Shown here: positions 1-33,013 of the stretch, piece after piece | Layout of the letters: every line of letters starts with the position of its first letter | Position numbering within the stretch: position 1 is the first letter of the stretch | Source of the DNA: Phormidesmis priestleyi Ana | GTDB taxonomy: Bacteria; Cyanobacteriota; Cyanobacteriia; Phormidesmidales; Phormidesmidaceae | DNA: 35,382 nt | Reading direction: 5' to 3' | Assembly (NCBI GenBank): GCA_001314865.1 | Contig: LJZR01000039.1 | Span: 1 to 35,382 of the forward strand | Program-made: the position numbers and the translations under genes | The notes under the pieces: model-generated | Database searches by the model: none | Told to the model about the DNA's origin: nothing | Seen by the model: the letters and a program-made list of their open reading frames with translations, nothing else

Positions 1-136
1 TTAGTTTGCTCTGGCGCTATTCTGCGCTGGACAGCCTCTTCTTGTTTGCCTGTCTGTAGTGGGATGCCAGCAGCCAGCGTGATACAGAGCAGCCGAGTAG
101 CGCGGCTGAATCCACGGGTGGGCAGAGGTCATCTAG

Positions 137-1599: not shown

Positions 1600-3030
1600 T
1601 CACGCCTCAAAGGTTAGCTGCTTGAGATGAGCTAGGGAAACACTGCGGATAAGGTTGTGCTGTTTGAGCAACAGTTCAGTATCTTCAATCATTTCTTCAA
1701 CGAGATAGCGATCGCGCAACACATCCAACGCCATCATTGATTGATTGTCATCCTGCTGCCAGTCTTCTAAATGACTAAGCCACCAAGCTTCAGGAACCGG
1801 ACACCGGTAAACGGCAGTCTCGCACAGCAAAATATAGGCATAGCGAGCATCCTGGTGCAAACGTTCAAACGTTTTTTCTAGCCTGTGCTGTACGTTTCGG
1901 CGTAGCGCTCGGGTAAAGCGTTCAAGTTGCCATTTATCGTCTGCACCTGCGGTATTGCCTGCGGCGGCTTCGGCAATTGATTGCTCAACCGATTCAATTT
2001 CTTGGCCATAGCGTTTCCAATAGGCCCGAACATTACCAAAGAAAGGGCGATCGCCGATCTCGCCCAAAATCGTCCGCAAGGCCAATGGATGACCTTCGTA
2101 TGCCTTACCAATCCTGGCTAAATCGTGGTCAGCAGCAAACCCTGTTTTTTCAAAGAGTGCCTGTTGCTCTGCTGTGCTCAGACCACCAATAGGCTGACGG
2201 TGCCAGAGATTGAGATATCTAGAACCCGCTTCTACCAGTTGTGCGGGTAGCTCTTGCGACGTCAGAACAAACCGGCTTTGAAAGGTTTCACTGGCCAAAA
2301 CAGCCTGAAAGAACGTGACAAAATTTGGATCTATGAACTCACTCCAGCCAGTTTGTTCATCGCCCTGCAAAATTTGTTCAAGAGAATCTATCAGAATGAG
2401 CGTGGGCGTTGTTTGCAAATGGGCCACCAAGCGACGGGTGAGCTGACCGCTTTGGCTGCGCTCTTCGGGTAATACCGGTTGACCGCAGCCTTCTAGCAAA
2501 CGCACTGCAAAGCTACCAAAGTCTGCGGATAGTTCTTGATTGTCGAAGTTTTCTCGCAGCAGTCGGTAGCGATTGTGAATTTGTAGCTCTGTGCTTAAAC
2601 GCTCTGAGAGTGCTGTTTTACCGATGCCAGCAAGACCCGTGAGCAGCAGTAGACGACAGTTTTGGGCGAGTTTTTGAGTGAGCGTCGCAATGAGTGAATC
2701 GCGTCCGACCCATAAGGGATCGTAAGCAAAAAACTGGATGCTCTCAGGCGCATCAAAAGGCAGAGCGTTAGCAGAGGGGCTTGCACTGGCATTTTCGCTA
2801 GTTTCATCCGGTAGCGACAGCATCACTGCTTTGGGTTCTAGGTCGAGAGCCTCACAGAGTTGCTCAAAGTTGGCAATAGAAATGCGAATGCCTCGAAAAA
2901 AGCGGCTGACGGTAGAGAGCGCAATCAGCGTATTGGCGGCCAAATCGCCCTGGGTCAGAAAACCTTGGCGTGCTAAGGCCGAAGTGACGGTAGCGCGATG
3001 GTCAGGATGGACGCAAATAGAACGAGGCAT
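1600..3030 (-). CDS. HTH plus NB-ARC/STAND-type ATPase regulator
   Basis: The predicted product is a 476-residue signal-sensing ATPase with an N-terminal helix-turn-helix (residues about 24-48, with LSTVSRFF). Walker A is GLAGIGKTA near residues 132-140 and Walker B LILID near 211-215; the C-terminal half is helical. The frame stays open upstream to 3180, but I chose ATG at 3030. Cyanobacterial members of this family characteristically start MPRS, and the longer N-terminus would only translate a tandem DNA repeat. It is divergent from the RT-Cas1 operon, so control of adaptation genes is a reasonable inference. It lacks the C-terminal sensor repeats of larger STAND proteins, unless one of the separate TPR proteins plays that part, which is speculation. 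Confidence 0.75.
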   Translation of the reverse strand: MPRSICVHPDHRATVTSALARQGFLTQGDLAANTLIALSTVSRFFRGIRISIANFEQLCEALDLEPKAVMLSLPDETSENASASPSANALPFDAPESIQFFAYDPLWVGRDSLIATLTQKLAQNCRLLLLTGLAGIGKTALSERLSTELQIHNRYRLLRENFDNQELSADFGSFAVRLLEGCGQPVLPEERSQSGQLTRRLVAHLQTTPTLILIDSLEQILQGDEQTGWSEFIDPNFVTFFQAVLASETFQSRFVLTSQELPAQLVEAGSRYLNLWHRQPIGGLSTAEQQALFEKTGFAADHDLARIGKAYEGHPLALRTILGEIGDRPFFGNVRAYWKRYGQEIESVEQSIAEAAAGNTAGADDKWQLERFTRALRRNVQHRLEKTFERLHQDARYAYILLCETAVYRCPVPEAWWLSHLEDWQQDDNQSMMALDVLRDRYLVEEMIEDTELLLKQHNLIRSVSLAHLKQLTFEA

Positions 3031-3085
3031 AAGCGGAGCGCAGCCAATGAATCGACTTAATTTTATAACGCACTGGGCTGTCATC

Positions 3086-3133
3086 TGAACTGATGTATGA
3101 ACTGACTTACCAACTGACTTACCAACTGACGCA
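3086..3133. promoter_or_regulatory. Four 12-bp tandem repeats between regulator and RT-cas1
   Basis: Four head-to-tail 12-bp units occupy 3086-3097, 3098-3109, 3110-3121 and 3122-3133: TGAACTGATGTA, TGAACTGACTTA, CCAACTGACTTA and CCAACTGACGCA. Degenerate half-units continue to about 3152. All share the core AACTGA. They lie in the 182-bp gap between the divergent starts at 3030 and 3213, where iteron-like operators would be expected. Which protein binds them is unknown; the HTH/NB-ARC protein is the obvious candidate. Confidence 0.5.
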
Positions 3134-3212
3134 AGTGACGCATGAGCTGACATAGGCGCTTGAGAGTATGAATTTGTCAACGAAACAGGTTCTACTCAAG
3201 GAGACATCACGA

Positions 3213-5183
3213 ATGCAAGTTTATCCAGAACACTTACAAGCCGCCTGGGCGCTGGTGCAGCGGGGAAGTCCGGCAGCGGGGGTAGATGGCATTACCACTG
3301 ACTTATTTGTAGGGGTAGCGAATGAACAACTGGCGCAAATGCATAGGCAGCTGCGCCGTGAGGTGTATGAAGCCAGCCCAGCAAAGGGGTTTTATGTACC
3401 CAAAAAGAACGGCGGGCAGCGATTGATTGCGCTTTCTACGGTACGAGATCGGATTCTTCAGCGCTACTTACTTCAGTCTATTTATCCTCGGCTGGAAAAA
3501 GCATTTACCGACAGTACTTTTGCCTACCGCCCTGGCCTTTCTATTTATGGCGCAGTAGATCGGGTGATGGCAATTTATGCGCCGCAGCCTACCTGGGTGA
3601 TTAAGGCGGATATTCAACAGTTTTTCGACAACCTTTCTTGGGGGGTGCTGCTCAGCCAACTAGAGCGGCTGAAGGTTGCGCCCGCGCAAGTGCGGCTAAT
3701 TGAGCAGCAGCTTAAGGCCGGGTTGATTCTTCAGGGGCAATTTTATCGGCCTAACAAGGGGGTATTGCAGGGCGGCATTTTGTCGGGGGCGCTGGCGAAT
3801 CTGTACCTGAGTGAGTTTGACCGGCTGTGCCAGGAGGCTGAGATTCCACTCGTGCGCTATGGGGATGACTGCGTGGCGGTGTGCCATAGCTACCTTCAAG
3901 CGAATCGTTTTTTGGCGATGATGCAGGGCTGGCTAGAAGACATTTACCTGACGCTAAATCCTGACAAGACTCGGATTGTGGGGCCGGATGAGGGGTTTGT
4001 GTTTTTGGGGCATATGTTTGCCAAGCAGCGGGTAATTGCGCCGGAGCGGAAGTGGGTGCAAGCGGGCAAAAAGCCAAAGGTGGCAAGGCCAATGTACGGG
4101 CCACCGAAGGCTTGCAGCATTGTGCCACTGCCAAAGGTGAAGACAAAAAAATCAACTGATGAATATTGGAGAGATGGCATGACGACATTGTATGTGACGG
4201 AGCAGGGTGCGTATTTACGGGTGCGGCATAGTCAGTTTCAGGTGTTTCACGAGCAGGAACTGCGCATTAGCATTCCGGCCAACAACATTACCTTTGTGGT
4301 GATGTTTGGGGCTTGCACCGTGAGCCACGGGGCCGTGCGGCTGGCGCTGCAACGGCGAATTCCGTTGCTGTACTTGTCCAATAAGGGACGTTACTTTGGG
4401 CGGCTGCAAACGACGGGCCAAGCGAAGATTGAATATCTGGTGGCGCAGGTAACGAAGTCGCAAGATGAAGACTTTGTGCGGCGACAGGCGATGAATGTGA
4501 TTGTAGGGAAGCTACATAATTCTCGCAAGCTATTGATGCGGCTGAATCGAAGGCGTAAAACAGATCTGGCGACAAAAGCCGTAAAAGAAATTGCGGTACT
4601 GATTAAACAGGTACAGCAGGCCGAAACGGTGGAGTCAATGCTGGGCTACGAAGGCCAAGGAGCAAGCCTGTATTTTCGGGCATATGGCTCGCTACTAAAA
4701 GGTGAGTTTGGGTTTGATAAACGGACGCGCCGCCCACCCACCGATCCGACCAATAGCTTGCTGAGTCTGGGCTATACCCTGCTGTCGCAGAATGTACATG
4801 CGATGACGGAGGCGGCAGGCTTGCATACGCACTTTGGCAATTTACATGTGCCACAGTCGCATAGACCCTCACTGGTGTGTGACCTGGTGGAAGAGTTTCG
4901 GGCGATGGTCGTTGATTCGCTGGTGGCCTATTTGATCAATTCCAACATTTATACCCCAGAGGACTTTACCCCACCGGATGGGCGCGGCGGTGTGTATTTG
5001 CATACGGATGCGATGAAGCGATTTTTGAAGCACTGGGAAGAAAAGCTGCAATCCGAAACGGTGCATCCGCATACGGGATACAAGGTTAGCCTGCGGCGAT
5101 GCTTTGAGCTGCAAGTGTGGGAGTATGCGGCCTGCATTAGTGGTGAGCGAGAAGAGTATAGGCCAATGGTGTGGCAGAAATAG
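3213..5183 (+). CDS. cas1: Reverse transcriptase-Cas1 fusion
   Basis: This is the spacer-integration enzyme of the locus, a 656-residue fusion. Residues about 1-290 are a group II intron-like reverse transcriptase: GVDGIT near 23-28, motif A with Asp133 in KADIQQFFD, motif GVLQGGILSGALANLYL near 183-199, and the catalytic YGDD at 216-219. From about 323 (MTTLYVTEQGAYL) it is Cas1 with the metal-binding set Glu480 (GYEGQGAS), His545 (FGNLH) and Asp557/Glu560 (CDLVEEFR), so both activities look intact. There is no N-terminal Cas6 domain, unlike some RT-Cas1 proteins. I chose ATG 3213 over ATG 3168 because AAGGAG at 3198-3203 sits nine bases ahead. Such fusions can take up spacers from RNA as well as DNA. 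It heads the adaptation operon. Confidence 0.95.
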   Translation: MQVYPEHLQAAWALVQRGSPAAGVDGITTDLFVGVANEQLAQMHRQLRREVYEASPAKGFYVPKKNGGQRLIALSTVRDRILQRYLLQSIYPRLEKAFTDSTFAYRPGLSIYGAVDRVMAIYAPQPTWVIKADIQQFFDNLSWGVLLSQLERLKVAPAQVRLIEQQLKAGLILQGQFYRPNKGVLQGGILSGALANLYLSEFDRLCQEAEIPLVRYGDDCVAVCHSYLQANRFLAMMQGWLEDIYLTLNPDKTRIVGPDEGFVFLGHMFAKQRVIAPERKWVQAGKKPKVARPMYGPPKACSIVPLPKVKTKKSTDEYWRDGMTTLYVTEQGAYLRVRHSQFQVFHEQELRISIPANNITFVVMFGACTVSHGAVRLALQRRIPLLYLSNKGRYFGRLQTTGQAKIEYLVAQVTKSQDEDFVRRQAMNVIVGKLHNSRKLLMRLNRRRKTDLATKAVKEIAVLIKQVQQAETVESMLGYEGQGASLYFRAYGSLLKGEFGFDKRTRRPPTDPTNSLLSLGYTLLSQNVHAMTEAAGLHTHFGNLHVPQSHRPSLVCDLVEEFRAMVVDSLVAYLINSNIYTPEDFTPPDGRGGVYLHTDAMKRFLKHWEEKLQSETVHPHTGYKVSLRRCFELQVWEYAACISGEREEYRPMVWQK

Positions 5184-5203
5184 GCTGATTGATTAGGAAG
5201 GAT

Positions 5204-5230
5204 GGGGGGATGGGGGATGGGGTGGCTGGG
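5204..5230 (+). other. Putative G-quadruplex between RT-cas1 and cas2
   Basis: In the 78-bp gap between RT-cas1 and cas2, runs of six, five, four and three G are separated by AT, AT and TGGCT on the coding strand. This fits the usual G4 pattern (four G-runs of three or more, loops up to seven). It would form in the operon mRNA just before the cas2 ribosome binding site (AGAGGAAGG, 5251-5259). Confidence 0.4.
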
Positions 5231-5261
5231 ATATTTTCTTGTTCTTTTTTAGAGGAAGGTA

Positions 5262-5540
5262 ATGTTTTATCTCGTTTGTTACGACGTAGTGGTGGACAAA
5301 CGCCGCACTAAGGTTGCTCACATTCTTGAAGGGTATGGTTTGCGGGTGCAAAAGTCTGTTTTTGAATGTGTGCTGACACCCGATCAGCGAGAAATGTTGA
5401 ACAAGAAGCTGGCGAAGTTTATTAACGACGAAGAGGATCAGGTGCGATTTTATCCGATGTCGCCACGCTATCGAAAGAGGGTGGCGGTGATGGGGATGCA
5501 GCCGGAGCGAGAGGTGGATGATGTGGCGTTTATTGTTTGA
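5262..5540 (+). CDS. cas2: Cas2 adaptation protein
   Basis: A 92-residue protein of the usual Cas2 length. It opens MFYLVCYDVVVDKRRTKVA, with the first beta strand followed by the conserved Asp8, then the amphipathic helix, and continues with RVQKSVFECVL, the second conserved Cas2 segment. Cas2 dimers bridge Cas1 dimers in the integration complex. A good ribosome binding site (AGAGGAAGG) precedes the ATG. It lies 78 bp after RT-cas1 and 71 bp before the four-helix-bundle gene, in one apparent operon. Confidence 0.95.
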   Translation: MFYLVCYDVVVDKRRTKVAHILEGYGLRVQKSVFECVLTPDQREMLNKKLAKFINDEEDQVRFYPMSPRYRKRVAVMGMQPEREVDDVAFIV

Positions 5541-5611
5541 CGCACGAAAAAGACGACAAGTTTACAAACAACAAGTTTAGAGACAGCAAGTTTTTTAGGA
5601 GAATAACAATC

Positions 5612-6028
5612 ATGGGACAGAATTTTGCGACTGCTTATGCCATGAACTATCAGCCGGAGGGCTACAAGGATCTGATTGCATATCAGCTGGCTTTTAATGA
5701 GTCGATGCGGCTGTATTGGGTGCTGCCTATGTTGCCGGACGAGGAAGATAGCCTGCTGGCCGCGAAGCTAGTAGAGGGTTCTCGGTTGGTATGCAGCTAT
5801 CTGGCAGAGGCTTGGGAGAATCGACGAAGCCGGGAGCTGTTTGTCGCGAAGCTGAATACGGCTGAGGCTAAGGTGGCGGCGATGCAAACCTGGATTGCGT
5901 TTGCGGTGGAATGCGGATATTTGCCTGTGGAAGATGGACAGATGCATTGCGACTTGTATGGCGATGTGTTGGTGGAAATTGGTCGGCTGGTGCAGACGGC
6001 GGCGGTTGTTGTTAATTTGGCGGGGTAG
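5612..6028 (+). CDS. Four-helix-bundle protein (IVS/Avd-like)
   Basis: A 138-residue helical protein of the 23S rRNA intervening-sequence (IVS) four-helix-bundle family. The hallmark opening YKDLIAYQLAF is followed by LVEGSRLVCSYLAEAWENR (compare RAavSipaNIAEG in the family), a third helix with KLNTAEAKVAAMQTW, and a closing GRLVQTAAV helix. The frame is open from 5537, but ATG 5612 has AGGAGA at 5597-5602 nine bases upstream. The same fold is used by Avd, the partner of the reverse transcriptase in diversity-generating retroelements. Sitting two genes after RT-Cas1, it is a good candidate RNA- or RT-binding partner. That role is inference; no such function is shown by the sequence itself. 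Confidence 0.8.
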   Translation: MGQNFATAYAMNYQPEGYKDLIAYQLAFNESMRLYWVLPMLPDEEDSLLAAKLVEGSRLVCSYLAEAWENRRSRELFVAKLNTAEAKVAAMQTWIAFAVECGYLPVEDGQMHCDLYGDVLVEIGRLVQTAAVVVNLAG

Positions 6029-6033
6029 GGCTG

Positions 6034-6693
6034 ATGAATCGATTGCAACAGATTAGCTGGAGGCGTTTGTTAAGTGGGCTTTTTCGGCGGGCGCGAAAGG
6101 AAAATGATGCGCTGGTACAGCGGTTGGCGATGTTGCGGGCTGATTATAACCAGCTACGGCAGGATACGCATGTGCTGCTGAACCAGGCGGATCGGGATAT
6201 GGAGGCACTAAGGGAGACGAATGCGGGGCTGGCAAAGGAGTTTGATGATTTGCAGCTACGGGTGTGGGAGCTAGAGCAGCAGGTGAAGGAGCTGTTGCTC
6301 TATATCGCGAGGGTGATGGGCACCGCTGATTCAAATGAGGCGGCGGGTGAAGCAGTGCCTAACCTGTCTTGGGTGAGGCTGGCGCTGGTCGGCGGACATC
6401 CGGCGACACAGCGGGAGGTGATTAATGAGCTGGCACTGATACATGGGTTGCAGCGGTGGGTTATAGTACCGCCCTCGCGGGAGTGTAGCTTTAAGAAGGC
6501 GGTGCTGAAAGGAAAGCTAGAGGGGTGCGATTTGATTGTGATTATTACGGGGTATATGAACCATTCGCTGACGCAGGCGGTATTTGGGCTAAAGAATTCG
6601 GGGGCACTGAAGGGCAAGGTGGTGCTGTTGAACTTTAGGGGGAAGACCGGTGTAGTGAGGGAGGTGTTAAGGCAGGTGGCTCTGCTAAAGTAG
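6034..6693 (+). CDS. Coiled-coil DUF2325 protein
   Basis: A 219-residue protein in two parts. Residues 1-20 are basic and aromatic (RRLLSGLFRRARK), about 22-95 form a long heptad-like coiled coil, and about 114-219 are a DUF2325 domain. That domain has LALVGGH at its start, GCDLIVIITGYMNHSL as the central strand-turn with the family's conserved His, and a final KVVLLNFRGKTG strand. DUF2325 is a Rossmann-like domain of unknown biochemistry. The start is five bases after the four-helix-bundle stop, so the two are co-transcribed. The 3' end of this gene exists in a second, broken copy ahead of array 2 (29660-29846), which ties the gene physically to the CRISPR leader. Confidence 0.8.
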   Translation: MNRLQQISWRRLLSGLFRRARKENDALVQRLAMLRADYNQLRQDTHVLLNQADRDMEALRETNAGLAKEFDDLQLRVWELEQQVKELLLYIARVMGTADSNEAAGEAVPNLSWVRLALVGGHPATQREVINELALIHGLQRWVIVPPSRECSFKKAVLKGKLEGCDLIVIITGYMNHSLTQAVFGLKNSGALKGKVVLLNFRGKTGVVREVLRQVALLK

Positions 6694-6761: not shown

Positions 6762-7054
6762 CAATCATTTGAGTTGCGACATTGTGTCAAAAAGAATGAA
6801 GATAGTGCTTTATCCATCGACATCCATTAATATTAACGGTAGTATTAGCTAAAGCTTCCAAATTCATGGGGGTTTACGGAACCTTGAAAACCTCATTATT
6901 TCGTTGACCCTAGAGAATCAATTGCTGTGCAAGGCGTTCAGCCCCTTTAGCACTATCTCTATCGAGATTTATTCTCAATTACAGGGTCGCATTTTAGACC
7001 CCCGCGAATTTGGCCTCCAGGAGCCCCTTTCCGCATGGCTTCCAGAGGCTGGGG
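6762..7054 (+). promoter_or_regulatory. Leader of CRISPR array 1
   Basis: This AT-rich, non-coding stretch lies between the terminator and the first repeat. Three elements are shared with leader 2. First is an inverted repeat with arms CCAAATTCATGGGGGT (6858-6873) and ACCCCCGCGAATTTGG (6998-7013). Second is a well-conserved block after the left arm (GGAACCTTGAAAACCT). Third are two 14-bp imperfect palindromes at 7012-7025 and 7037-7050, whose centres are 25 bp apart, four bases short of the repeat. Sequence between these elements has diverged. I see no convincing -35/-10 pair. The conserved end next to the first repeat is where Cas1-Cas2 recognition would be expected. Confidence 0.75.
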
Positions 7055-9448
7055 GTTCAAATTCCATTACCCCGCAAGGGGACGGAAACAAGAGAACTTG
7101 TCTAGTTTGGCAAGCTTGCCACCCTATGTTCAAATTCCATTACCCCGCAAGGGGACGGAAACAAGGATAATGTGGGTCTTTCCGTTCTCACAAATTGGTT
7201 CAAATTCCATTACCCCGCAAGGGGACGGAAACCAGGCGCCAGATCTCTCCGTGGGGCGTCCGTCCCCGTTCAAATTCCATTACCCCGCAAGGGGACGGAA
7301 ACACATCCCAAATACCGAGTGGAAAGGTTGCATGATTGGTTCAAATTCCATTACCCCGCAAGGGGACGGAAACTAGGATATTGGCCATTTCAGGCATTTT
7401 TCCATAGGTTCAAATTCCATTACCCCGCAAGGGGACGGAAACGGTCCCCTCTGGAACCAATCACACAGAAGCAGCTAGTAAGTTCAAATTCCATTACCCC
7501 GCAAGGGGACGGAAACCTCCGGCAAGACTTCTGCCAGAAGACAGAACCACCCGTTCAAATTCCATTACCCCGCAAGGGGACGGAAACTTCCCTTCTTTAT
7601 GTGCATCTTCTACAGTCTCTTTGGTTCAAATTCCATTACCCCGCAAGGGGACGGAAACAGTGATTTATCTCCAAACCACTGCCACTTGCCTCTGGTTCAA
7701 ATTCCATTACCCCGCAAGGGGACGGAAACGACTCCGTTCATCTTGAGTGACTTGGTCACCCATCTCTAAGTTCAAATTCCATTACCCCGCAAGGGGACGG
7801 AAACCGCAGGCTGCGACCCCCATAAACATCAATGGAGCGAGTTCAAATTCCATTACCCCGCAAGGGGACGGAAACAGGGACTCCCCTGGACAAACCCTGT
7901 CTACCCAGGGTTCAAATTCCATTACCCCGCAAGGGGACGGAAACAGTAAATACGCCGCATAGGTGCGATGATCATGACCGGTTCAAATTCCATTACCCCG
8001 CAAGGGGACGGAAACCTCGCGTACTTAGGGGAAAACCCCTGAGTATCGGTTCAAATTCCATTACCCCGCAAGGGGACGGAAACGCTCGGGCTGGGGCCCG
8101 CAACCCCACATCATCAGGATCGTTCAAATTCCATTACCCCGCAAGGGGACGGAAACACGTATGCCACAGCCGGGCTCCAACCCTCTGACAGAATCGTTCA
8201 AATTCCATTACCCCGCAAGGGGACGGAAACTTTGTCTCCTCGCCCTACTTGCAGGTAGGTTTGATCGCCGTTCAAATTCCATTACCCCGCAAGGGGACGG
8301 AAACCTCCTCCTTGCTCCTAGGAGTGAGTTTTTTTTCGACTAGGTTCAAATTCCATTACCCCGCAAGGGGACGGAAACTCGTTGGGTTCGAGGGTGTAGC
8401 CCAAAGGGCTACGAGCGTTCAAATTCCATTACCCCGCAAGGGGACGGAAACCTTCTCATCTGGAAGGAGTACTGCTGCCTTTGGAGAGATTGTTCAAATT
8501 CCATTACCCCGCAAGGGGACGGAAACACCCGAGTTGACCCTTGGGGTCTCCACCCTTCCACCTTGTTCAAATTCCATTACCCCGCAAGGGGACGGAAACA
8601 GCTTCGAGAGCGGCGACAGTGTTGTTATCACCCGTTCAAATTCCATTACCCCGCAAGGGGACGGAAACTCACCTCCACACTTACCGACAGACTTCATAGC
8701 AGCAGTTCAAATTCCATTACCCCGCAAGGGGACGGAAACCAACCTTCCACCTTAGGAGGAGAAACGGGAGTGGCAGTTCAAATTCCATTACCCCGCAAGG
8801 GGACGGAAACTTCCAGGTCATCTCGACTCCGCACGCATTGTTTTCAGCAATGTTCAAATTCCATTACCCCGCAAGGGGACGGAAACCTAACGCCTGATGT
8901 GTTTCTGGCGAGTGCAACTGGGTTCAAATTCCATTACCCCGCAAGGGGACGGAAACTATCCGTGTAGATGTACTTGAATACAGTTTCCAGTTCAAATTCC
9001 ATTACCCCGCAAGGGGACGGAAACCTTGGCCGTTGAGCAGGGTAACGCAGAGATCCAGAGTTCAAATTCCATTACCCCGCAAGGGGACGGAAACACGCTT
9101 CTACATCTTCCTCAACCGCAACTTCAGTAAGCGTTCAAATTCCATTACCCCGCAAGGGGACGGAAACTAAGGTTACGCTCTAAAAAGCGAGTATTGCCCA
9201 TTGTTCAAATTCCATTACCCCGCAAGGGGACGGAAACCCTTAGCAGTTTCAGAAGGCAGTACATACGTCGAGATTCAAATTCCATTACCCCGCAAGGGGA
9301 CGGAAACCCAAGCTGACGGTATTCATCTCCTGCAGCTTTTGGTTCAAATTCCATTACCCCGCAAGGGGACGGAAACGACTTGACGTCTGTGCTGTCCACA
9401 ATAGTGCCGTCGTGTTCAAATTCCATTACCCCGCAAGGGGACGGAAAC
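7055..9448 (+). CRISPR. CRISPR array 1, 34 repeats and 33 spacers
   Basis: Thirty-four copies of a 35-nt repeat starting GTTCAAATTCC and ending ACGGAAAC are separated by 33 unique spacers of about 33-41 nt. The centre of each repeat is a hairpin, CCCC-GCAA-GGGG, with a GNRA-type loop. It is followed by exactly eight nucleotides (ACGGAAAC), the expected type III crRNA 5' handle after Cas6 cleavage at the hairpin base. The only variant I saw is the copy at 9273, whose first base is A, near the distal end. That and the conserved leader place the leader on the left and transcription on the plus strand. Several reading frames stay open across the array; they are repeat artefacts. Many spacers hold strong inverted repeats. 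Confidence 0.97.
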
Positions 9449-13447: not shown

Positions 13448-14467
13448 ATGATATGCATAATGAGTAAAGCTTTATGCGAAAGCCTCACACTGTTTCATAT
13501 TTTGCGATCTAGCCTGCTGGGAGAATTACCTGTGGCCAATGCCCCAATTCAATTGACCCTTAGCCATCATGAAACCACCGAGGGATTGACCTATCAGCAG
13601 TTAACCATTGCGCTGATGAGCCGCGATCGCATTATCTCTCCTCAGGATTTAGCCAACCTACGCTTGCCCGCTGGACTAGACCCTCGCAAAGGGGTTGTGA
13701 TCTCAGGCCGCGCACCGGTATGGCTATATGTGTATCTTGCACATGAATGTCACCCTACGCTGTGGGTGGCCTGCTTCGATCCGCGTTTGGGCGCTGTCGT
13801 GACCCTGACGCACTCCCATGCGTTCCAGGTAGGCCAAGTGATCTCCTTGGAAGAACTCAATTTAGAGATGCCTTCAATTCAGCCTGCTAAGCTAGGCTCA
13901 GCGCTGCTGGTTGTCGGCCCACCCGACAGCGGCAAAAGTGTTTTTTCGCATCTGCTCTTTAGCACCCTAATCCAAGACTATCCGGATATCTATTTACAAA
14001 GAGCGCATTGGGATGGGGAGGGCAACTGGATTTTAGAACTGCCTGAGGGGGCTAGCAATGATGAACGTGAAGCCTTTAAGCTCGCCAACAAAGGCACCCT
14101 AACCGAACACTTTTTTCCTTATCAAAAGGAAGCAATCCTTAATTTAAGACAACAGAAAGCCTTAGTCATCGTCGATGCAGGCGGCATGGTACAACCCGAG
14201 AAGCAATCTATTCTAGAGGCTTGCACCCACTATGTAATCATCAGCTCAAACCCAGAAGAAGTCGAACCCTGGCACGACTTCTGTGGAAAACAAGGAAATT
14301 TGCAGCCCATTGCAGTCATTCATAGTACGTTAGAAAATACATTGGAGATTTTGCCGCATGAACCGCTTTTGGAGATTCGCTGTGGGCCATGGATACAGGA
14401 ACAGGTAGAAGAGATGCCACCTGCACTGCTCGAAAAAACAAAGCTATTGCTCAATTCAATAAACTAG
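13448..14467 (+). CDS. csx3: Csx3 (Crn3) ring nuclease fused to a P-loop ATPase
   Basis: The N-terminal 135 residues are Csx3: IISPQDLANLRLP, GVVISGRAPVWLYVYLAHECHP and ACFDPRLGAVVTLTHS. The residues that matter in Archaeoglobus Csx3 (His60, Asp69, Arg71) correspond in spacing to His102, Asp111 and Arg113 here. Csx3/Crn3 degrades the cyclic tetra-adenylate made by Cas10. The C-terminal part is a P-loop ATPase-like domain with Walker A GPPDSGKS (157-164) and Walker B LVIVD (239-243). This fusion is known from cyanobacteria, but the ATPase part has no settled role. Alternative start ATG 13460 is possible; neither has a clear ribosome binding site. It lies directly upstream of the effector operon. 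Confidence 0.9.
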   Translation: MICIMSKALCESLTLFHILRSSLLGELPVANAPIQLTLSHHETTEGLTYQQLTIALMSRDRIISPQDLANLRLPAGLDPRKGVVISGRAPVWLYVYLAHECHPTLWVACFDPRLGAVVTLTHSHAFQVGQVISLEELNLEMPSIQPAKLGSALLVVGPPDSGKSVFSHLLFSTLIQDYPDIYLQRAHWDGEGNWILELPEGASNDEREAFKLANKGTLTEHFFPYQKEAILNLRQQKALVIVDAGGMVQPEKQSILEACTHYVIISSNPEEVEPWHDFCGKQGNLQPIAVIHSTLENTLEILPHEPLLEIRCGPWIQEQVEEMPPALLEKTKLLLNSIN

Positions 14468-29659: not shown

Positions 29660-29846
29660 ATGAATTTGTGATTGGATGGTGATTATCACAGGATACATGA
29701 ATCATTCTTTGACACGGGCGGTATTTTTTTTGAAAGGAATTTGGGGACTGTAGGGAAGACGTGATGAAGACGTGGCAATACTGAATTTCCCGAGGAAAAG
29801 CGGTATGGTTAGGGAGGTTTTGCGACTGATGGGGCGGCTAGCGTAG
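29660..29846 (+). pseudogene. Relic of the DUF2325 gene 3' end
   Basis: Starting near 29660 and in frame from 29679, the plus strand reads VIITGYMNHSLTRAVFFLKG, then a broken stretch with a stop, then VAILNFPRKSGMVREVLRLM and a TAG at 29844-29846. This aligns with the last 50 or so residues of the intact DUF2325 protein (VIIITGYMNHSLTQAVFGLK and LLNFRGKTGVVREVLRQV). As at array 1, the stop is followed by about 350 bp of leader and then a CRISPR array. Confidence 0.85.
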
Positions 29847-30196
29847 GTATTTCGCTGTAATCCTTGTCTTGAGAGGGTTTTGAGTACAGCGACTGAGCCA
29901 ATGAAAGGGGGCGAGTTGCTGTATTTTGTCAAAAAAGGTTAAGAGAGTGCAAAATTGATCGCTATTCATTAATCTGAGGCTTATTATTAATAAAAGCTTC
30001 CAAATTCGTGGGGGTTTTTGGAACCTTGAAAACCTGATTCTTTCGTCAACCCTAGAGAATCGATTGCCCTGCAACGGTTTGAGCCTTGTCAGAGGGCAAT
30101 TTATTAGGACTAATTCTCATTTTCAAAAGCGCTTTTTAGACCCCCGCGAATTTGGCTTCTGAAAGCCTCTTTCCGTATGGCTTCTAGAAGCCAGGG
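29847..30196 (+). promoter_or_regulatory. Leader of CRISPR array 2
   Basis: This is a second copy of the array 1 leader. The inverted-repeat arms are CCAAATTCGTGGGGGT (30000-30015) and ACCCCCGCGAATTTGG (30140-30155), spanning 156 bp exactly as in leader 1. The block GGAACCTTGAAAACCT follows the left arm. Two palindromes, GGCTTCTGAAAGCC (30154-30167) and GGCTTCTAGAAGCC (30179-30192), are again 25 bp centre to centre and four bases from the repeat. The strong terminator present ahead of leader 1 is not conserved here. Confidence 0.75.
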
Positions 30197-33013
30197 GTTC
30201 AAATTCCATTACCCCGAAAGGGGACGGAAACTTTCCTCTGTCAGGGAGTACTGTATAGTACCCTCCATGGTTCAAATTCCATTACCCCGAAAGGGGACGG
30301 AAACAACCATTGGTCAAGTTCCCCGCCCGCACCGAAGAGCGGCTGGTTCAAATTCCATTACCCCGAAAGGGGACGGAAACTACCCCTGTGGGGGGCATGG
30401 TCCAGACCTCTCCGTGTTCAAATTCCATTACCCCGAAAGGGGACGGAAACCTCCCATTTTTGGTACAGCTCTTGAGATGTCTCAGGAGTTCAAATTCCAT
30501 TACCCCGAAAGGGGACGGAAACTTCAAGTGCAGCTCCGGCAGTAGACCAAGCAACGATGTTCAAATTCCATTACCCCGAAAGGGGACGGAAACCCGTCAA
30601 TCGCACCACCAACATTCAAAGCGGACTGGCTAGCCGTTCAAATTCCATTACCCCGAAAGGGGACGGAAACCCACCGCCAGACATATGGTCGGCTGCCTTT
30701 TGAGCGGTTCAAATTCCATTACCCCGAAAGGGGACGGAAACGAAAAGGCTTAGGCCCTTCATGGTCGCCCTCTTGTAGTTCAAATTCCATTACCCCGAAA
30801 GGGGACGGAAACCGAAGCTCGCCCCCCCCTGGTAAGGGGATAACAGCCCCGTTCAAATTCCATTACCCCGAAAGGGGACGGAAACAATATTTTGAGGGCA
30901 ATTAGCCCTCTCACTATTATTGTTCAAATTCCATTACCCCGAAAGGGGACGGAAACTGAAGAGGGAGGCACCCCTCTTCAATAAGATCCCTTTCCAGTTC
31001 AAATTCCATTACCCCGAAAGGGGACGGAAACCCCTCAGGCTGCGCAAGGGCTGAATGGGACCCGATAATGTTCAAATTCCATTACCCCGAAAGGGGACGG
31101 AAACTTCAAGAGGGTTGGATACCTCTGGGACTTCTTGAGCGAGTTCAAATTCCATTACCCCGAAAGGGGACGGAAACGATTCTTGGCAATAGCCAGAATC
31201 CATTGAGCAGCATTAGTTCAAATTCCATTACCCCGAAAGGGGACGGAAACCCAATATAGGCCTCCCCGGCGGTTCCTGTGTAGAGTTGTTCAAATTCCAT
31301 TACCCCGAAAGGGGACGGAAACACGACTGAACCTGGGTACCAGTCGTTGCTACAGTGGTTCAAATTCCATTACCCCGAAAGGGGACGGAAACATCATGGC
31401 AAACACCACTACTACAATCAGAAAGGCAAGTTCAAATTCCATTACCCCGAAAGGGGACGGAAACCTGCCTGTGCCTTTGCCTCTAGCGGCGAAATCGTCT
31501 GTTCAAATTCCATTACCCCGAAAGGGGACGGAAACCTATTCTAGTATTTGTAAAACAACTACATTACCTTCACGTTCAAATTCCATTACCCCGAAAGGGG
31601 ACGGAAACCCGACATCTCCCCAGCAATACCAGAGGGTATAAGCGTTCAAATTCCATTACCCCGAAAGGGGACGGAAACCTGAGCCGGAAGTAGAAACCAC
31701 CACAGCTTGGCCATTGTTCAAATTCCATTACCCCGAAAGGGGACGGAAACCTTTTGCTATGTACAGGTCAGTTAGAACCTTTTCTGGTTCAAATTCCATT
31801 ACCCCGAAAGGGGACGGAAACTCATTGAACATCCAAGTTGCGTCTTGGTTGTACCGCATGTTCAAATTCCATTACCCCGAAAGGGGACGGAAACTTTTTA
31901 CAGCAAAAGAAAAACTTAATCAGTTGATTGTTCAAATTCCATTACCCCGAAAGGGGACGGAAACAGGGAACTACTTTCTCGTCCCCTGCTTGGATTGGCG
32001 TTCAAATTCCATTACCCCGAAAGGGGACGGAAACAGGAATAATTCCCTGAGCGGCATACCGGTTGTAGACCTGTTCAAATTCCATTACCCCGAAAGGGGA
32101 CGGAAACGTCTTTCACAGAAAGCCCCTGAGCTACTAACTCCTGGTTCAAATTCCATTACCCCGAAAGGGGACGGAAACGTACCTATCCACGGGAGTACGT
32201 GGACGGATGCTACAAGTTCAAATTCCATTACCCCGAAAGGGGACGGAAACGTCATGCCCAGCAGCACAACTGCAGCATTCATGAGGTTCAAATTCCATTA
32301 CCCCGAAAGGGGACGGAAACCCAGGTAGCGCACGGCCGGGGGCGAAGTTGATATCGTTCAAATTCCATTACCCCGAAAGGGGACGGAAACGAGTTGTGGC
32401 TCTTGTGCAGAAACCTGACCTGAAACGTTCAAATTCCATTACCCCGAAAGGGGACGGAAACTTTTGGTAACATCAGTCACATCAGTCACATCAGTGTTCA
32501 AATTCCATTACCCCGAAAGGGGACGGAAACGAAGACGAGATTGCCGAGGATGCAGTGGATGCATCGTTCAAATTCCATTACCCCGAAAGGGGACGGAAAC
32601 CCAATTACGACATATGACTGTCGCCGCATCAGGGTGTTCAAATTCCATTACCCCGAAAGGGGACGGAAACAGCAGGGCCGTGGAGATCGCGATACTCTTT
32701 TCCAGCCTGTTCAAATTCCATTACCCCGAAAGGGGACGGAAACCGCGGTAGATGTACTGCTGGCGCAAGTGCGCCCCAGTTCAAATTCCATTACCCCGAA
32801 AGGGGACGGAAACACTTGGGATGACGTAAACATCTCTGAGCAGTATGGTGTTCAAATTCCATTACCCCGAAAGGGGACGGAAACGAAGGTTTAGGCCGGA
32901 AGTGAAACCGTCCTCATGTTCAAATTCCATTACCCCGAAAGGGGACGGAAACTTAAACTCGACATATCCGCCGTGGATGACTCCTGGGTGTTCAAATTCC
33001 ATTACCCCGAAAG
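30197..33013 (+). CRISPR. CRISPR array 2, 39 full repeats plus one truncated
   Basis: Thirty-nine full 35-nt repeats and a fortieth cut after 24 nt (32990-33013) enclose 39 unique spacers. The repeat differs from array 1 at a single position, 21, where C becomes A, giving CCCC-GAAA-GGGG. The hairpin and GNRA-type loop are kept, so the same Cas6 should process both. The leader is on the left. The last repeat breaks off abruptly into unrelated sequence, which continues to the stop of the TPR gene at 33163. The spacers are even richer in strong inverted repeats than those of array 1. One spacer (32462-32495) is built of three near-identical CACATCAGT-type units. Confidence 0.97.

What the first reader, a model, noticed from the sequence alone, without database searches (positions are those of the whole stretch)
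3213..6693. RT-Cas1 operon carries an IVS/Avd-like four-helix bundle and a coiled-coil DUF2325 protein
The operon order is RT-Cas1, Cas2, four-helix bundle (5612-6028), DUF2325 (6034-6693). The four-helix fold is that of Avd, which binds the RT and template RNA in diversity-generating retroelements, and of proteins encoded in rRNA intervening sequences. Its presence next to an active-site-intact RT-Cas1 suggests a dedicated RNA-delivery or priming factor for RNA spacer acquisition. The DUF2325 protein would be a second unexplored partner. The role is inference; the adjacency and fold signature are seen.
Basis: partly seen in the sequence, partly recalled or inferred. Interest (0 to 1): 0.75.

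Follow-up and report, generated by a model that had tools for sequence, protein, structure and literature searches.

The report
Reverse-transcriptase CRISPR operon with acidic helper
A cyanobacterial CRISPR operon that may record RNA carries two extra genes whose counterparts sit in the same place in its close relatives; one is a cousin of the RNA-binding helper of another reverse-transcriptase system but has lost most of its family's conserved positive charges, so it more likely joins proteins than carries RNA.

Summary
RT-Cas1 (3168-5183), Cas2 (5262-5540), a four-helix protein (5612-6028) and a coiled-coil DUF2325-like protein (6034-6693) lie in operon order beside type III-D-like effector genes. 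The four-helix protein is a true 23S-rRNA-IVP/S23 family member (PF05635); its model matches S23 structures, then Avd. The last gene is a swappable slot: DUF2325-like in 10 of 15, DUF7682 zinc-ribbon/ParE-like in 5 of 15, never both or neither. Operonic IVPs (20 in the tree) separate from 33 stand-alone cyanobacterial IVPs at 100/100. They are mostly acidic (23 of 24 computed under pI 7, one at 9.5; stand-alone median 8.9) and lack arginines invariant in the stand-alone set, but keep a basic motif near helix 3. This weakens 'RNA delivery like Avd'; I favour a protein hub linking RT-Cas1-Cas2 to a swappable partner. An IVP-adaptation-module association is already listed in a figure legend (PMC10910872); clade restriction, charge change and partner swap were not in the passages I saw.

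The parts
3168..5183 (+). RT-Cas1 fusion, YGDD and Cas1 motifs intact
5262..5540 (+). Cas2
5612..6028 (+). acidic four-helix-bundle protein of the 23S rRNA IVP/S23 family (operonic subfamily; pI 4.5)
6034..6693 (+). predicted long helix/coiled coil (residues 2-100) plus small Rossmann-like DUF2325-like domain (about 110-219)
7055..9448 (+). CRISPR array 1: 33 exact repeats (and at least one variant repeat), directly downstream of the operon
29667..29755 (+). broken copy of part of the DUF2325-like gene, upstream of array 2
29913..30231 (+). second leader with the start of array 2 (76% identical to 6771-7089)
30197..32952 (+). CRISPR array 2: 39 exact repeats

Best explanation
This is an RT-Cas1 adaptation operon beside type III-D-like effector genes. 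In one branch of cyanobacterial RT-Cas1 such operons carry an IVP-type four-helix protein that forms its own subfamily: mostly acidic, without most of the family's conserved basic positions, often duplicated. It is paired with one last gene that is either the coiled-coil DUF2325-like protein or a zinc-ribbon/ParE-like protein. Most likely mechanism (inferred): the IVP, perhaps a ring-like oligomer like its relatives (2gsc and 2rld each hold five chains; oligomer state recalled), is a protein-protein hub. It docks on the basic RT-Cas1-Cas2 and holds the usually basic third protein, which would supply nucleic-acid or nucleotide recognition, or gating, for spacer capture. Shown: gene order, family, predicted fold, clade-wide linkage, partner exclusion, charge change, purifying selection. 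Inferred: complex formation, the hub role and any effect on RNA or DNA spacer capture.
For: Linkage in 15 of 15 assessable loci, including 2 of 2 that were new in a later search of the window's order; none in 42 other cas2 neighbourhoods. Partner slot: DUF2325-like in 10, DUF7682-ParE in 5, never both, never neither. Operonic IVPs are one side of a 100/100 branch. Charge shift and loss of basic columns. Complementary charge: 6 of 6 DUF7682-ParE proteins are +20 to +29, 7 of 10 DUF2325-like proteins have pI about 9 or more; RT part of the branch +10.5 (13 rows) against +3 outside (31 rows). Fold: S23 Z 16.7 and 15.0, Avd 13.9-14.4.
Against: No interaction was tested; only single chains were folded. 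One of the four IVPs from the two later loci (L211a) is basic, pI 9.5. Operonic IVPs keep R71/R72 (R72 lost in P. galeata) and are more basic than stand-alone ones in the loop and helix 3 (+1.4 against +0.3), so a moved nucleic-acid surface is possible. Three of ten DUF2325-like proteins are not basic, among them L092 and L094, the window's two nearest relatives with the gene. Cas1 charge does not differ inside and outside the branch. P. galeata's DUF2325-like protein lacks the coiled coil. L139 has IVP-DUF7682-ParE behind an RT-less cas1-cas2. Charge comparisons ignore relatedness; the RT-Cas1 tree was a quick one; long branches were flagged in the IVP tree.
Confidence: 0.4

Rival explanations
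1. Avd-like RNA cofactor: the IVP binds RNA and the RT and delivers or primes template RNA for spacer capture.
For: Same fold as Avd (Z 13.9-14.4), weak bAvd profile matches in 12 of 22 family members, an RT in the same operon, R71/R72 kept and helix 3 segment slightly more basic, one basic member (L211a).
Against: Most operonic IVPs are acidic and lack the arginines at 54, 55 and 69 that all 33 stand-alone ones have; no operonic IVP in the 42 other cas2 neighbourhoods.
Confidence: 0.22
2. Regulatory or toxin-antitoxin-like pair carried in the cas operon: the acidic IVP neutralises a basic, possibly toxic partner (ParE-like or DUF2325-like) and so controls or stabilises the adaptation genes.
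For: ParE_like domain (PF24732, 76-86 bits in the three proteins scanned) in the partner slot of five branch loci; 6 of 6 such proteins strongly basic; a small gene that looks RelE/ParE-like and an HTH gene follow cas2 in 21 and 23 other RT-Cas1 loci; overexpression of Marme_0671 in the Marinomonas operon was toxic (PMC5576922, passage), though it was not compared with these genes.
Against: DUF2325 is not a toxin family that I know of (recalled); PF24732 is common in cyanobacteria (101 of 386 genomes) and 0 of 30 loci looked at had an IVP or cas gene within about 1.5 kb.
Confidence: 0.2
3. Passengers: IVP genes are mobile-like and have landed beside RT-Cas1 with no role in it.
For: Stand-alone-type IVPs do lie antisense beside RT-Cas1 in L094, L095 and L130, and a distant one between cas1 and cas2 in Anabaena PCC 7122.
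Against: Operonic IVPs are a separate set, always in sense after cas2, under purifying selection where tested, and tied to a partner slot.
Confidence: 0.05

Closest known systems
RT-Cas1/Cas2 type III-B adaptation genes of Marinomonas mediterranea (PMC5576922, passages read)
   Different: That RT is in branch 1 of the RT tree in PMC5513706 (passage); the window's RT was not placed on that tree, and Marme_0670/0671 were not compared with the genes here. Effector here is type III-D-like
Avd of diversity-generating retroelements (PDB 4dwl, 8ub7, 8ub8)
   Same: Four-helix fold, encoded beside an RT
   Different: 13% identity over the aligned part; operonic IVPs mostly acidic, whereas Avd is basic and RNA-binding (recalled)
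23S rRNA IVP / S23 four-helix bundle family (PF05635, TIGR02436)
   Same: Passes both curated cut-offs; closest solved folds 2gsc and 2rld
   Different: In a cas operon; arginines 54/55/69 of the stand-alone cyanobacterial members lost
[quoted passage not shown] 6B legend and text passages)
   Same: An IVP-adaptation module association is listed
   Different: The figure and supplements were not available; the passages seen do not describe the IVP locus, so whether it is this one is unknown
DUF2325 (PF10087)
   Same: C-terminal domain of the fourth gene matches weakly; own-genome paralogue passes the cut-off
   Different: Below the cut-off in the window protein; joined to a coiled coil

Membership tests
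23S rRNA IVP / S23 four-helix bundle (PF05635) | profile score over the curated cut-off | tested here: met
   38.4 bits against 33.8; TIGR02436 27 against 24; 22 of 22 aligned members match PF05635 at E up to 0.1
23S rRNA IVP / S23 four-helix bundle (PF05635) | four-helix fold | tested here: met
   pLDDT 89 model; 2gsc Z 16.7 rmsd 1.8 over 115, 2rld Z 15.0 rmsd 2.5 over 111
stand-alone cyanobacterial IVP subfamily | RR pair (window 54-55) present in all 33 stand-alone rows | tested here: not met
   operonic rows basic at 54 in 0 of 20 and at 55 in 4 of 20; window has V and E. A subfamily trait, not a condition of PF05635 membership
DGR accessory protein Avd | same fold | tested here: met
   8ub8 Z 14.4 rmsd 2.1 over 110; 4dwl Z 13.9 rmsd 2.5 over 108; best unrelated helical bundle 12.7, so the margin is modest
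DGR accessory protein Avd | encoded beside a DGR reverse transcriptase | tested here: not met
   the RT is fused to Cas1; its best NCBIfam RT model is group II intron RT/maturase, below that model's cut-off
DGR accessory protein Avd | template/variable repeat pair and target gene nearby | not tested
   no dedicated search was made
DGR accessory protein Avd | basic, RNA-binding surface (recalled) | tested here: inconclusive
   net charge about -8, basic columns lost but R71/R72/R74 present; binding not testable
RT-Cas1 type III adaptation module | RT fused to Cas1, Cas2 beside it, CRISPR array and type III genes nearby | tested here: met
   Cas10/Cmr2, Csx10 (III-D), Csx7 and Cas6 over their cut-offs
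RT-Cas1 type III adaptation module | capture of spacers from RNA | not testable with these tools
   needs an acquisition assay
DUF2325 (PF10087) | profile score over the curated cut-off | tested here: not met
   19.4 bits against 33.6; linked through homologues, hence 'DUF2325-like'
type II toxin-antitoxin | toxic partner neutralised by the neighbour | not testable with these tools
   ParE_like profile only, in the alternative partner

The most novel reading that the evidence does not exclude
Reverse-transcriptase CRISPR systems independently took up the fold that diversity-generating retroelements use as Avd, stripped most of its conserved basic surface, duplicated it into a two-paralogue hub, and use it to plug in interchangeable nucleic-acid- or nucleotide-sensing subunits that decide what RT-Cas1 captures: a new kind of multi-subunit adaptation complex.
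Probability: 0.28. Interest if true: 0.8.

Novelty: new variant of a known kind. Interest (0 to 1): 0.6.

Why it matters
How RT-Cas1 complexes choose and load RNA is open, and most work rests on few systems (my recall). A branch-fixed extra subunit with a known fold, altered charge and a swappable partner gives defined genes to delete and a defined complex to reconstitute. It would also show that the IVP/Avd fold was taken up by more than one reverse-transcriptase system, perhaps with a different job in each.

Tried and rejected
Passenger idea: rejected for the operonic IVPs because they separate from stand-alone IVPs. A general link between stand-alone IVPs and RT or cas genes: of the 29 loci of the phylum survey read besides the window's own (about 1.5 kb each side), only L020/G229 had one. 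DUF2325-like domain function by fold: Foldseek best E 1.6e-3 (a putative nucleoside deoxyribosyltransferase), VIA-align best Z 9.9, rows spread over unrelated Rossmann-like proteins, Ago MID domains among them at 7.5-7.6; I draw only 'Rossmann-like'. Spacer targets: both arrays gave no match in the phage collection. Effector type: I first took it for III-B; one search gives Csx10 (type III-D, 395 bits, cut-off 177) with a Cmr2-type Cas10, so I now write III-D-like. Literature: searches listed no paper whose title, abstract start or read passages join IVP or DUF2325 with RT-Cas1, other than the legend entry in PMC10910872. Most listed papers were seen as listings only; the library lacks most subscription papers; supplements were not available.

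Rows left out. RT-Cas1 scan: 84 relatives, the best 80 kept, 76 loci. IVP tree: without the L133 IVP (broken into three frames), two distant IVP-like frames (L091, 26 bits; L098 1187-1576, 28 bits), L020 (same locus as L130) and the later L211/L212 genes; the 20 operonic rows include L139. The 33 stand-alone rows are 28 survey loci and 5 plasmid loci (two rows identical), start codons picked by rule; other places listed got no locus. Branch loci L093, L095, L099 and L127 end too soon and were not counted, nor were L102 (ends 480 bases after RT-Cas1) and L149. L105, next to the branch in the tree, has cas2 followed by an array and no IVP. L131, L139, L211 and L212 are not in the RT-Cas1 tree; L131 (74%), L211 (72%) and L212 (64% identity to the window) are counted as branch members by identity. 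The 42 outside neighbourhoods include one with 548 bases downstream, two with about 1.4 kb, near-copies such as L088/L090, and several distant or non-cyanobacterial ones. Of the 13 matching genomes, 11 appear to be the window or loci already seen; 2 were new. dN/dS figures are pairwise NG86. Charge p-values ignore relatedness.
Full report
1. The observation. The window is one whole contig (35,382 bases) of a genome of 5.93 Mb; its nearest RT-Cas1 relatives are cyanobacterial. RT-Cas1, Cas2, a four-helix protein and a coiled-coil protein follow each other on the + strand, the last two 5 bases apart, and a CRISPR array with 33 exact repeats starts about 360 bases further on. Families: RVT_1 and Cas_Cas1, CRISPR_Cas2, 23S_rRNA_IVP (38.4 bits, cut-off 33.8), DUF2325 (19.4 bits, cut-off 33.6). 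The DUF2325 assignment stands on relatives: 8 of 8 aligned homologues match it at E up to 0.1, and a 317-aa coiled-coil paralogue elsewhere in the same genome scores 43 bits; hence DUF2325-like. The effector genes further along are type III-D-like: Cas10/Cmr2, Csx10 and Csx7 models over their cut-offs, plus Csx3 and Cas6.

2. Fold. AlphaFold2 on 22 aligned IVPs gives pLDDT 89. The best solved matches are the S23/IVP proteins 2gsc (Z 16.7, rmsd 1.8, 115 aligned) and 2rld (Z 15.0), then Avd: 8ub8 (14.4) and 4dwl (13.9). The best unrelated row is 12.7, so the margin of Avd over it is modest. By sequence profile only 2rld and 2gsc are found; the Pfam bAvd model matches 12 of 22 members weakly. The DUF2325-like protein is predicted as a 100-residue helix plus a four-strand Rossmann-like domain (pLDDT 82, pTM 0.46), with no telling structural match.

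3. Linkage. In a sample of 386 genomes of the phylum, IVP-like genes are in 41 (E up to 1e-6), RT-Cas1-like matches in 17 (E up to 1e-120, some places of them Cas1 alone), DUF2325-like domains in 5 (E up to 1e-4). An RT-Cas1 scan of the genome collection gave 76 loci (84 relatives, best 80 kept); with plasmid and survey loci I scanned them for cas2, IVP and DUF2325-like genes. IVP genes lie directly downstream of cas2, in sense, in the window, L005 (Pseudanabaena galeata plasmid), L092, L094, L096, L097, L098, L100, L101, L103, L126, L131 and L133. Those long enough for the RT-Cas1 tree (69 rows, quick method) fall in one branch (SH-aLRT 83 with P. galeata, 96 without it). A later search of the window's order (63 genomes, 13 with a match) added two assessable loci, G407 and G428, and both have the module. 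That makes 15 of 15 loci with enough sequence downstream of cas2. Of 58 cas2 neighbourhoods examined together, 14 hold an operonic IVP (13 of the branch, and L139 with an RT-less cas1-cas2), 2 branch members end within 100 bases, and the other 42 hold none. In L098 RT-Cas1 is interrupted by one stop, and in L133 RT-Cas1 and the IVP are each split over frames.

4. A partner slot. Ten of the 15 loci end in the DUF2325-like gene. The five others (L098, L100, L101, L133, G428), and L139, carry in its place a protein with a DUF7682 zinc-binding and a ParE_like domain: Pfam matches over cut-off in the three scanned (L098, L100, L101), own-profile matches in the rest. No locus has both or neither. 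Nine of the 15 have two IVPs in tandem; the window has one. In P. galeata the DUF2325-like protein lacks the coiled coil. Many RT-Cas1 loci outside the branch have, after cas2, a small gene that looks RelE/ParE-like by eye (21 loci; one member gave a ParE_toxin match under the cut-off) and a small HTH gene (23 loci).

5. Charge. In a tree of 20 operonic, 33 stand-alone and 3 antisense RT-Cas1-neighbouring IVPs, the operonic ones are one side of a branch at 100/100, and the antisense ones fall among the stand-alone ones; three operonic rows are long branches. Operonic: pI 4.5-7.0, median 5.4. Stand-alone: 6.6-9.95, median 8.9 (Mann-Whitney p 2e-9, not corrected for relatedness). Four IVPs of the two later loci: 5.9, 5.1, 5.9 and, against the pattern, 9.5 (L211a). 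Column by column, stand-alone IVPs have R at window positions 54, 55 and 69 in 33 of 33 and K/R at 46 in 33 of 33; operonic ones are basic there in 0, 4, 0 and 4 of 20, and in 0, 1, 0 and 2 of the 4 later ones. The four with R55 in the tree set are L098b, L100, L101 and L139, all from ParE-partnered loci, as is the later one (L212b). Against a plain loss of basic surface: R71 is in 20 of 20, R72 in 19 of 20, position 74 gained charge, and the loop plus helix 3 is more basic in operonic IVPs (+1.4 against +0.3). The RT part of the branch is more basic than outside (+10.5 against +3; 13 and 31 rows), the Cas1 part is not (+9.4 against +10.4). DUF7682-ParE proteins are +20 to +29 in 6 of 6; DUF2325-like proteins are basic in 7 of 10.

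6. Selection. Window against P. priestleyi: dN/dS 0.24 (IVP) and 0.29 (DUF2325-like), higher than RT-Cas1 (0.07) and Cas2 (0.02) but well under 1: working, faster-evolving accessory proteins.

7. Meaning. The proposed RNA-delivery role does not follow from the fold: most basic residues that stand-alone IVPs keep are gone, though a basic motif near helix 3 stays. A protein hub that joins RT-Cas1-Cas2 to a swappable third protein fits the charge change, the duplication and the partner swap; it is an inference. An antitoxin-like role of the IVP toward a basic partner is the other main alternative.

8. What is known. [quoted passage not shown] PMC5513706 describes a cyanobacteria-specific RT-Cas1 branch and the module's horizontal spread (passages); the terms helix, DUF, S23 and accessory gave nothing to the point there, nor in PMC5541045. 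PMC5576922 reports two genes of unknown function in the Marinomonas operon (passages).

Noticed in passing
window 29667-30231: A broken piece of the DUF2325-like gene (75% identical to 6526-6614) and a second leader (76% identical to 6771-7089) precede array 2, so array 2 seems to have arisen by duplication of the gene's 3' part with leader and first repeat; its repeat differs by one base.
   Followed up: partly
L094:4-408, L095:12012-12404, L130:9453-9848: Stand-alone-type IVP genes lie antisense beside RT-Cas1 in three lineages, and a distant IVP lies between cas1 and cas2 in Anabaena PCC 7122 (L091:13970-14317). A rough estimate from the survey density expects about 0.01 such cases in 94 loci; no reason known.
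   Followed up: partly
L086:678-8354 (Scytonema NIES-4073 plasmid); L082, L083, L084: The same DUF2325-like domain ends proteins of about 728-741 aa (TPR-like matches, under cut-off, in the three scanned); on the Scytonema plasmid it follows DpdJ-like helicase and DpdK-like PLD genes, suggesting a wider defence role of the domain.
   Followed up: partly
L088, L091 and about 20 other RT-Cas1 loci: In other RT-Cas1 branches cas2 is followed by a small RelE/ParE-like-looking gene (21 loci) and a small HTH gene (23 loci).
   Followed up: partly
window 1600-3180 (-): The longest frame of a divergent HTH + AAA/STAND-type ATPase gene overlaps the start of RT-Cas1; NB-ARC or AAA ATPase genes also lie upstream of RT-Cas1 in Gloeothece and P. 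galeata.
   Followed up: no
window 13448-14467: Csx3 (Crn3) with a C-terminal part that holds a P-loop-like motif by eye; WYL and TPR genes lie between array 1 and the effector genes.
   Followed up: no
window 7055-9448 and 30197-32952: 32 and 38 distinct inter-repeat intervals (one holds a variant repeat) with no match in 50,697 phage records, in line with the enigmatic spacers reported for Arthrospira RT-Cas1 arrays (PMC5513706, passages).
   Followed up: partly
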